This document shows, piece by piece, positions 12,896-14,553 of a stretch of 64,000 nucleotides of DNA; position 1 is the first letter of the stretch, and every line of letters begins with the position of its first letter. Location of the stretch: contig NZ_AP021881.1 of NCBI RefSeq assembly GCF_009937995.1, forward strand, positions 2,666,001-2,730,000. Direction: 5' to 3'. Under the pieces are notes generated by a model that saw nothing but the letters and a program-made list of their open reading frames with translations, did no database searches and was not told the DNA's origin. The position numbers and the translations under genes are program-made. This stretch comes from Sulfuriferula nivalis. Lineage in GTDB: Bacteria; Pseudomonadota; Gammaproteobacteria; Burkholderiales; Sulfuriferulaceae.

Positions 12896-13054
12896 TGGTT
12901 CAACCCCACCCCTTTCTGCGCCACCGTGTAGTGGTGAACAATACGGGGGCAGTCGGCGAGGACTAATGTAATGGACGCTCCCTTCCTAAAATGGCATCTC
13001 GGTGCCAAAGTAGTGATTGCACCATCACCACGCAACCAGAAAGGAGTGTCCATT

Positions 13055-14104
13055 ATGAAGATTACGACGATTGGAATTGATTTGGCAAAGACTGTATTTC
13101 AGATTCACGGTGTAGATGAACATGGCAAGGTGATCTTGCGTAAACGGCTTAATCGATCTGAGATGGCCGTATTCTTTGCCAAGTTATCACCTTGTCTGAT
13201 CGGCATGGAAGCCTGCGGCAGTGCGCATCACTGGGCCAGGAAACTAAGCCAGTTCGGTCATGTTGTAAAGTTGATGGCACCACAATTTGTGAAGCCATAT
13301 GTCAAAACCAACAAGAACGATATGGCTGATGCTGAAGCCATTTGTGAAGCAGTAGCACGACCCAACATGCGCTATGTTGCTGTGAAAAATATCGAGCAAC
13401 AGGGGGTGCTATCGATCCATCGTGCGCGTGCCGGATTTGTAAAAAGCCGAACCGCACTAGCCAATCAGATACGCGGATTGCTCGCTGAATTTGGCATTGT
13501 AATCCCGCAAGGCATTCGCTCTATCATGAAGAAAATGCCATCAATACTGGAAGATGAGGAAAACGGTTTGCCAGGTGTGATGCGCAATCTCATGCGCGGA
13601 TTGACTGAGCATCTGAAGGGGCTGGACACACTGGTTGCAGAATTGGAAATACAGATTCAGCGGTGGCACCGTGAGAGCGATGCCAGTCGGAAGCTGGAAT
13701 CTATTCCTGGCATTGGCCCGATCACAGCGAGCGCGATCGTGGCAACTATTGGCAATGCAAGAGAGTTTAACAATGGTCGCCAGTTGGCTGCATGGTTGGG
13801 TTTGGTACCCAGGCAACACTCAAGCGGGGGCAAGCCAACACTGTTGGGGATTAGCAAACGGGGTGATGCGTATCTGCGAACTTTGCTGATTCATGGTGCG
13901 CGGTCGGTGATCCGGGTTGCAGAAACGCGGATGGATGGTGATAACTGGCTGCGTAAGTTGTTGGCAAGGCGAAACAGGAATGTAGCGTCGGTGGCGTTGG
14001 CCAACAAGAATGCACGGATCATCTGGGCACTGCTGGTGCGTGAACAGTCATTCCAACCTGGTTATGTTACGACAGGCAATTGGGCTGTGACATCTTCAGA
14101 CTAA
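13055..14104 (+). CDS. IS110-family DEDD transposase/recombinase
   Basis: A 349-aa protein. The start at 13055 is set by AAGGAG (13041-13046) and the family start MKITTIGIDLAK; the frame is open further upstream. The N-terminal RuvC-like DEDD domain shows Asp in GIDLAKTVF, Glu in GMEACGSAHHWAR and the Asp pair in KTNKNDMADAEAI. The C-terminal Transposase_20 domain contains IPGIGPITASAI, AAWLGLVPRQHSSGGK (with the conserved serines) and GDAYLRTLLIHGAR. No frameshift or stop is seen, so it may be active. Such enzymes recombine the circular element with a target under the direction of an element-encoded guide RNA. Confidence 0.95.
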   Translation: MKITTIGIDLAKTVFQIHGVDEHGKVILRKRLNRSEMAVFFAKLSPCLIGMEACGSAHHWARKLSQFGHVVKLMAPQFVKPYVKTNKNDMADAEAICEAVARPNMRYVAVKNIEQQGVLSIHRARAGFVKSRTALANQIRGLLAEFGIVIPQGIRSIMKKMPSILEDEENGLPGVMRNLMRGLTEHLKGLDTLVAELEIQIQRWHRESDASRKLESIPGIGPITASAIVATIGNAREFNNGRQLAAWLGLVPRQHSSGGKPTLLGISKRGDAYLRTLLIHGARSVIRVAETRMDGDNWLRKLLARRNRNVASVALANKNARIIWALLVREQSFQPGYVTTGNWAVTSSD

Positions 14105-14129
14105 GAGGGTATCAGGGCACTATAGTTGA

Positions 14130-14330
14130 AATAGCAGGTTCAAAGTGTAAGTTCCACAGATTGCTCAGGCAATCATGATGTGATGGTTAGACAGGTCAGA
14201 CCGTGAGTGGCGTAACCTGCCTCAGACAAGGCACTTCGAGTGCGCAGGACTATAAGGTTCTACTCAGCGGATTCCATCAGGGACAGAAGCAAAAGCTTCA
14301 CCTAAAGTCCGGATGTATGGCTGCAATCTT
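14130..14330 (+). ncRNA. candidate bridge RNA (seekRNA) of the IS1111-type element
   Basis: This is the segment between the transposase stop and the right inverted repeat. A stem GCAGGTT/AACCTGC (14134-14140 with 14214-14220) encloses the hairpin GATTGC-TCAG-GCAATC (14159-14174). Two further hairpins follow: GCACT-TCG-AGTGC (14231-14243) and GAAGC-AAAA-GCTTC (14286-14299). Around the first, CTCAGACA (14221-14228) is complementary to 14385-14392 at the right junction and AGGACTA (14246-14252) equals 12959-12965 at the left junction. Around the second, TCCATCAG (14273-14280) partly complements 12963-12970 and ATGTATGGCTG (14313-14323) matches 14380-14390 at 10 of 11. The limits and function are inference. 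Confidence 0.6.
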
Positions 14331-14389
14331 TACCTTTCTATCATCATCGATTGAAAGCTTGGCATAACTGGGAGCGTCCATGTATGTCT

Positions 14390-14553
14390 GAGACCGCAGG
14401 CCGAGTTCCGCAGCCGCCCGTTTTGTTCGTCACTACACGGGAAGTCGGCAGGAATGGCGCAGTAGGCTGCCATTCTCTTAGCTTACTTTCTCTTGGGCAA
14501 GCAAGCGTAAGTAACTTGCCATCAGACAACCCCGACCAGAATCTGCAAGCAAA
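14390..14553. other. non-coding stretch right of the IS1111-type element
   Basis: 164 bp between the insertion sequence and the stop of the orphan secreted protein. It contains the right arm of the flanking palindrome (14417-14440) and a TGGCGCAG octamer that in the left flank directly follows the arm but here is separated from it by about 14 bp. No credible coding frame, tRNA or terminator was seen. Confidence 0.5.

What the first reader, a model, noticed from the sequence alone, without database searches (positions are those of the whole stretch)
14130..14392. Candidate bridge RNA (seekRNA) with recognisable guide segments in an intact IS1111-type element
Seen: the 3' non-coding part holds two hairpins, each flanked by short segments that match the element's junctions. 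Around hairpin 14231-14243, CTCAGACA (14221-14228) is the exact reverse complement of 14385-14392, and AGGACTA (14246-14252) is identical to 12959-12965. Around hairpin 14286-14299, TCCATCAG (14273-14280) complements 12963-12970 at 6 of 8 positions, and ATGTATGGCTG (14313-14323) equals 14380-14390 at 10 of 11. Both loops share the same order: right guide, hairpin, left guide. Known: IS110/IS1111 elements carry structured RNAs whose loops pair with target and donor DNA. Inference: this is the guide RNA, with CT as the core dinucleotide.
Basis: partly seen in the sequence, partly recalled or inferred. Interest (0 to 1): 0.75.

Follow-up and report, generated by a model that had tools for sequence, protein, structure and literature searches.

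The report
Guide RNA of a jumping gene
This is a small, intact bacterial jumping gene whose RNA carries four short address labels for where to cut and insert; comparison with about 70 relatives shows the labels change in step with each element's own insertion site and ends, so it is a well-supported but ordinary new member of the recently discovered bridge-RNA (seekRNA) family.

Summary
Window 12964-14384 is a complete 1421-bp IS1111-group element: 349-aa DEDD transposase, 12-bp sub-terminal inverted repeats with 7-bp and 3-bp outer extensions, and a 3' non-coding region. A second copy with an identical RNA sits elsewhere in the genome in the same palindromic repeat. Removing the element restores GAGGACTGTCTGAG, the unfilled sequence of that repeat in related genomes.

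In 33 homologous elements inserted at about 30 different sites, RNA positions matching 14246-14251 and 14221-14228 match each element's own left and right flanks (187/198 versus 65+-8 when shuffled; 231/264 versus 127+-7). The two donor segments follow the element's own ends. All four signals repeat in 38 held-out, more distant elements. Structure is conserved, with many compensatory changes.

Only one base (T or C) is common to both junctions; the donor has A-T where the target has C-T. The donor right guide is a 5-nt core (TCCAT), with one mismatch to this element's own end; it also pairs with an RNA segment (TGATGG) resembling that end.

Novelty is low: a new member of a known kind. Expression and activity are untested.

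The parts
12964..14384 (+). Complete IS1111-group insertion sequence, 1421 bp
   Evidence: Removing it restores GAGGAC+TGTCTGAG, as in unfilled repeats; second copy of the same length at C1:506852-508393
12958..12963 (+). Left target flank GAGGAC
   Evidence: matches unfilled repeat copies
12964..12970 (+). Left outer extension TAATGTA (7 bp); first T is the only base shared by target and donor at both junctions
   Evidence: canonical 7-bp IS1111 left extension; family consensus TAATGGA or CAATGGG
12971..12982 (+). Left sub-terminal inverted repeat ATGGACGCTCCC
   Evidence: perfect 12-bp inverted repeat of 14370-14381
13055..14104 (+). Transposase, 349 aa, DEDD/RuvC plus Transposase_20 domains; AAAGGAG just upstream of ATG
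   Evidence: Pfam PF01548 and PF02371, NCBIfam NF033542 IS110 family RNA-guided transposase 374 bits; E52, D89, D92 invariant in A1 and D9 present wherever the N-terminus is
14105..14369 (+). 3' non-coding region that holds the guide RNA
   Evidence: between stop codon and right inverted repeat
14159..14345 (+). Conserved guide RNA (bridge RNA/seekRNA) domain as modelled; true 5' and 3' ends unknown
   Evidence: alignment A2, model R1; 186.9 bits here and 27-187 bits in the homologs
14181..14186 (+). TGATGG, pairs with CCATCA 14274-14279; resembles the element's own left end (consensus TAATGGA)
   Evidence: helix supported by compensatory changes in the wider set (helix 3)
14204..14210 (+). 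5' strand of target-loop stem, pairs with 14260-14266
   Evidence: 6 of 7 pairs with double-sided compensatory changes in A2
14221..14228 (+). Right target guide CTCAGACA (14229 A can extend it to the first target core base)
   Evidence: covaries with own right flank, 231/264 vs 127+-7 shuffled
14231..14243 (+). Hairpin between the two target guides
   Evidence: compensatory pairs
14246..14251 (+). Left target guide AGGACT
   Evidence: covaries with own left flank, 187/198 vs 65+-8 shuffled; held-out 204/228 vs 127+-5
14260..14266 (+). 3' strand of target-loop stem
14273..14280 (+). Right donor guide TCCATCAG (pairing core TCCAT 14273-14277)
   Evidence: covaries with left-end positions 3-7: 318/345 vs 289+-4 (max of 10,000 shuffles 304)
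14281..14310 (+). Donor-loop hairpin GGAC...GTCC with inner stem 14286-14299
   Evidence: compensatory pairs
14313..14318 (+). Left donor guide ATGTAT
   Evidence: equals own right end in all parsable homologs of the close set, with variants ATGTAC, ATCTAT, ATATAT, ATGCAT; held-out 202/228 vs 170+-4
14359..14364 (+). -35 box TTGGCA of the promoter formed in the excised circle (-10 TATAAT = 14383-14384 joined to 12964-12967)
   Evidence: 11/12 consensus, spacer 18; none of 5000 random end joins reached 10/12
14370..14381 (+). Right sub-terminal inverted repeat GGGAGCGTCCAT
14382..14384 (+). Right outer extension GTA (3 bp)
   Evidence: canonical IS1111 length
14385..14392 (+). Right target flank TGTCTGAG
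   Evidence: matches unfilled repeats

Best explanation
The 3' non-coding region of this IS1111-group element is transcribed into a bridge RNA (seekRNA) that the 349-aa DEDD transposase uses to choose both partners of recombination. In the upper loop, CTCAGACA (14221-14228) pairs with the top strand right of the insertion point and AGGACT (14246-14251) pairs with the bottom strand left of it, addressing GAGGACTGTCTGAG inside a dispersed palindromic repeat. In the lower loop, TCCAT(CAG) (14273-14280) pairs with the element's left end and ATGTAT (14313-14318) with its right end as joined in the excised circle. The circle joins 14384 to 12964 and so builds a TTGGCA-N18-TATAAT promoter that can transcribe transposase and RNA. 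Shown here by sequence: the ends, the target, all four guides by natural covariation, the RNA fold, and the junction promoter sequence. Inferred from the characterised family: transcription, binding to the transposase, circle formation, strand exchange.
For: Intact transposase. Canonical 7/3-bp extensions around 12-bp inverted repeats. Exact reconstitution of the unfilled repeat. Second copy with identical RNA in the same repeat and same orientation. Target guides track each element's own flanks in 33 elements with 30 distinct right and 27 distinct left targets and in 38 held-out elements at 43-61% transposase identity. Donor guides track each element's own ends. Structure 97.7% paired with 16 double-compensated pairs, far above shuffled and slid controls. 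Six related copies in genome G001 with near-identical RNA all sit at the same short guide-matched motif in six different genes. Junction promoter. Order of guides as published for IS1111 (PMC11187229).
Against: No RNA or activity data. Single-sequence fold is not unusually stable (z -1.17). This element's left end TAATGTA mismatches its own donor guide TCCAT at one base. Rfam has no family that matches. Some homologs have partial right-guide matches (5 of 8). Related elements inflate the shuffle statistics somewhat.
Confidence: 0.96

Rival explanations
1. The guide/flank matches are chance or the by-product of the non-coding region having captured flanking DNA; target choice is by the protein alone.
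For: A single element's 6-8 nt matches are short; the 8-mer alone appears in about 1.3% of shuffled regions.
Against: The same RNA columns match each element's own flanks in dozens of elements at different sites, and the pattern holds in a held-out set.
Confidence: 0.01
2. Only the target loop (short seekRNA) matters; the lower segments 14273-14318 are conserved for RNA folding or protein binding and not for donor recognition.
For: For ISEc11 the short 82-nt seekRNA was sufficient for movement (PMC11187229). CCATCA 14274-14279 also pairs with TGATGG inside the RNA. The match to this element's left end is only 4 of 5 in the core.
Against: ATGTAT changes to ATGTAC, ATCTAT, ATATAT or ATGCAT in step with the right end in every element of the close set whose right end could be parsed, and TCCAT changes to CCCAT, TTCAT or ATCAT with the left end.
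Confidence: 0.08
3. The element and RNA are real but inactive relics in this genome.
For: Only two copies; the left end has a mismatch to its donor guide; the copies differ at a dozen internal sites.
Against: Open frame, conserved catalytic residues, perfect inverted repeats, complete guide matches to the target, identical RNA in both copies.
Confidence: 0.25

Closest known systems
IS1111-group seekRNA elements (ISEc11, ISKpn4, ISPst6, ISPa11; Siddiquee et al. 2024, PMC11187229)
   Same: Transposase type and length, 12-bp sub-terminal inverted repeats with 7/3-bp extensions, downstream non-coding region, guide order (top-strand complement first), promoter formed at the joined ends; ISPa11 likewise targets a palindromic repeat
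   Different: Different target sequence and repeat; donor-guide covariation is read here directly, whereas that paper's sequenced short RNAs were described for their target matches
IS621 bridge RNA (IS110 group; Durrant et al. 2024, PMC11208160; Hiraizumi et al. 2024, PMC11208158)
   Same: Bispecific RNA with target and donor loops, each with a left and a right guide; DEDD transposase with detectable sequence similarity in the C-terminal part (8wt6, E 9e-10)
   Different: RNA lies in the right end rather than the left; guide order within the loops is reversed; no CT core common to donor and target (one shared base only); long inverted repeats
IS110-family transposases of other betaproteobacteria (about 65-76% identical, e.g. 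L069-L091)
   Same: Same architecture, homologous RNA, same end sequences
   Different: Each has other target guides and sits at another target

Membership tests
IS1111 group | DEDD (RuvC) N-terminal domain and Transposase_20 C-terminal domain, about 330-350 aa, G--P----S(t)G motif | tested here: met
   349 aa; PF01548 and PF02371; GLVPRQHSSG motif; D/E/D/D residues conserved
IS1111 group | Sub-terminal inverted repeats of 11-13 bp with 7-bp left and 3-bp right extensions, no target duplication | tested here: met
   12-bp perfect repeats, extensions 7 and 3; exact reconstitution of the empty site
IS1111 group | Long non-coding region downstream of the transposase gene | tested here: met
   14105-14369, 265 nt
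IS1111 group | Guide order: top-strand complement precedes bottom-strand match | tested here: met
   CTCAGACA then AGGACT; same order in all homologs tested
IS1111 group | Joined ends create a promoter | tested here: met
   sequence only: TTGGCA-N18-TATAAT across the junction, conserved in most homologs; activity not testable
Bridge RNA / seekRNA | Two loops that address target and donor, supported by covariation with flanks and ends | tested here: met
Bridge RNA / seekRNA | Conserved secondary structure | tested here: met
Bridge RNA / seekRNA | RNA is expressed, bound by the transposase, required for movement | not testable with these tools
   no RNA or activity data available
IS621-like IS110 group | Bridge RNA in the left end, left guide before right guide, CT core common to donor and target | tested here: not met
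   RNA in the right end, reversed order, only one shared base

The most novel reading that the evidence does not exclude
In this IS1111 clade the donor right guide is held in a stem by an upstream RNA segment (TGATGG) that mimics the element's own left end, so donor binding must displace an internal mimic; and recombination proceeds with a single shared base (T, C or, in one relative, G) in place of a two-base core. The stem and the donor pairing both show covariation, which fits a conformational switch or a proofreading step, not described in the papers read here.
Probability: 0.3. Interest if true: 0.5.

Novelty: new member of a known kind. Interest (0 to 1): 0.33.

Why it matters
It gives one more programmable RNA-guided recombination system with all four guides read out and checked by natural variation. 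The set of about 70 homologs with matched RNAs, ends and targets is a ready-made table of natural reprogramming for the IS1111 branch. That includes donor-guide covariation, which bears on whether IS1111 RNAs really bridge donor and target as IS621's does. It does not open a new class of system.

Tried and rejected
Rfam: no hit at or near the RNA, even at E up to 5, and none on the unfilled target repeats. Single-sequence folding alone is uninformative (z -1.17). A CT core as proposed: rejected as a shared core, because the first base differs between target (variable) and donor (always A at the right end of parsable close homologs). Fixed-column scoring of the right guide understated the signal because its register shifts by one in some homologs; best-register scoring with the same freedom in the shuffles was used instead. 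L092 and L100 run off their contigs and were dropped. An alternative outer stem pairing 14181-14186 with the 3' CATCA near 14341-14348 is possible in some homologs but only weakly above shuffles. No structure prediction was run, as the protein family is not in doubt.

Full report
Observation. In shuffled versions of the non-coding region the exact right-guide octamer followed within 40 nt by the left-guide hexamer appeared 4 times in 50,000. So the target part was already unlikely to be chance; the donor matches were weaker.

The element. The gene at 13055-14104 encodes a 349-aa transposase with PF01548 (DEDD) and PF02371 and matches NCBIfam 'IS110 family RNA-guided transposase' at 374 bits against a cut-off of 140. 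It is 59-74% identical to the relatives in A1, with the E52, D89 and D92 positions invariant. Its perfect 12-bp inverted repeats lie at 12971-12982 and 14370-14381. With the IS1111 rule of a 7-bp left and a 3-bp right extension (PMC11187229), the element is 12964-14384. Taking it out leaves GAGGAC+TGTCTGAG.

The site. The own genome holds one other copy (C1:506852-508393; 98% identical over the stretch compared, non-coding region identical), in the same orientation in the same repeat. It also holds unfilled copies of the repeat with GAGGATTGTCTGAG (twice), GAGGACTATCTGAG and GAGGACTATTTGAG. Copies in other genomes of the genus carry the exact sequence GAGGACTGTCTGAG (A4). Both exact sites found in this genome are the two occupied ones. 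The repeat is a long palindrome (DNA hairpin z -5.05), so the choice of target resembles ISPa11 in REP sequences and ISKpn4 in attC sites (PMC11187229).

Covariation of target guides. I collected homologous elements from other genomes, located their ends by the inverted repeats, and aligned their non-coding regions. Thirty-three elements at 60-100% transposase identity, with 30 distinct right targets and 27 distinct left targets, were compared. The RNA hexamer aligned to 14246-14251 matches the element's own left flank at 187 of 198 positions; shuffling partners gives 65+-7.6, maximum 92 in 5000. The right guide pairs with the element's own right flank at 231 of 264 positions (246 with G-U) against 127+-7, maximum 154. 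A covariance model built from these found the RNA in more distant elements not used to build it, and their guides were scored the same way: left 204/228 versus 127+-5, right 196/266 versus 145+-5. Relatedness inflates such shuffles somewhat, but the excess is many standard deviations.

Covariation of donor guides. RNA 14313-14318 equals the last two bases of the right inverted repeat, the 3-bp extension and the next base in all 33 close elements whose right end could be parsed (among them window ATGTAT; others ATGTAC, ATCTAT, ATATAT, ATGCAT), and in the held-out set scores 202/228 versus 170+-4. RNA 14273-14277 follows the reverse complement of left-end positions 3-7: 318/345 versus 289+-4, maximum 304 in 10,000 shuffles (69 elements); held-out alone 174/190 versus 154+-3. 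Telling cases are CAATGAA with UUCAU and GAATGAU with AUCAU. Its 6-of-8 match is explained by one G-to-T change in this left end (family TAATGGA, here TAATGTA) and one position that does not pair in the family.

Structure. The consensus fold has 36 pairs, 97.7% formed in 33 sequences, 16 of them with changes on both sides, all far above both controls. In 73 sequences 35 of 36 pairs have double-sided changes (that alignment was fitted to the model, so it leans towards it). Each guide pair flanks a hairpin. The stem TGATGG (14181-14186) with CCATCA (14274-14279) includes most of the right donor guide. Its 5' strand resembles the left end itself, and the stem keeps pairing when the guide changes (helix 3). 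This suggests, as inference only, that the donor guide is masked in the free RNA by an internal mimic.

Core. The base T at 12964 / 14385 is common to both junctions and is T or C in the homologs, matched by the left target guide, the right target guide and the left donor guide. The base before it varies in the target (C here) and is A on the donor side in the parsable close homologs. It is read by the left target guide and, in about half of the elements (17 of 35 against 9 expected), by one more base of the right guide. In this element that base is A (14229), which pairs with the T of the GAGGATTG variants, while the left guide reads C. Hence there is no CT core shared by donor and target as in IS621 (PMC11208160).

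Transcription. The joined ends form TTGGCA-18 nt-TATAAT (11 of 12 consensus), with the -10 box spanning the junction. Most homologs form the same promoter, with TATAAT or TACAAT; 5000 random joins never reached 10 of 12. The linear element shows no such site. This agrees with reports that circle formation creates a promoter (PMC11187229; PMC11208160).

Independent test by multi-copy relatives. Six copies of a shortened related element in genome G001 carry near-identical RNA and sit in six different genes. They share just the guide-matched bases AGGA|G on the left and G..CATCATG on the right. Here the flanks beyond the guides are unrelated, so shared flanking homology cannot explain the agreement.

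Verdict. A real, probably functional bridge RNA in an intact IS1111-group element; a new member of a known kind. Not shown: expression, binding, movement.

Noticed in passing
L199-L204 (genome G001, same genus), about 1.07 kb each: Six copies of a related, internally deleted IS1111 element (transposase reading frame broken) keep both ends and a well-scoring guide RNA (100-107 bits). All are inserted between a Shine-Dalgarno-like AGGAG and the ATG of six different genes; RNA segments CAGGAGA and ATGATGAGC match that motif. It looks like a non-autonomous element aimed at translation start regions.
   Followed up: partly
window 12910-12963 joined to 14385-14540; also L004, L005, L007, L008, L180-L184: The target is a dispersed, strongly palindromic repeat of about 170-200 bp (11 matches in this genome, found in 9 of 18 genomes of the genus; no Rfam family) ending in GGTTACTTTCTCTTGGGCAAGCAAGAGAAAGTAACTTGCC. 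Its stem arms differ between copies in ways that look compensatory.
   Followed up: partly
L007 1380-1960 (G000:C1:2441034-2441599); similar in G012 and G014: Inverted pairs of the same repeat about 230-270 bp apart recur in several genomes, suggesting a composite mobile or structured unit.
   Followed up: no
window 12964-14384 and C1:506852-508393: Both exact GAGGACTGTCTGAG sites found in this genome are occupied by the element; the free ones are one-base variants, as if the element has filled its perfect targets.
   Followed up: partly
L133 2231-2416 and 3569-3758; L139 1247-1425 and 2573-2759; L140; L113; L135 2045-2250 (-) and 3609-3814 (+): Several loci hold two guide-RNA matches close together, in tandem or inverted, which points to neighbouring or nested IS1111 elements or to duplicated RNAs.
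   Followed up: no
window 12971-13054: The transposase frame stays open upstream of its ATG back through the left inverted repeat (a 377-aa ORF from 12971), so a longer start at the inverted repeat is formally possible; homologs support the 13055 start.
   Followed up: partly
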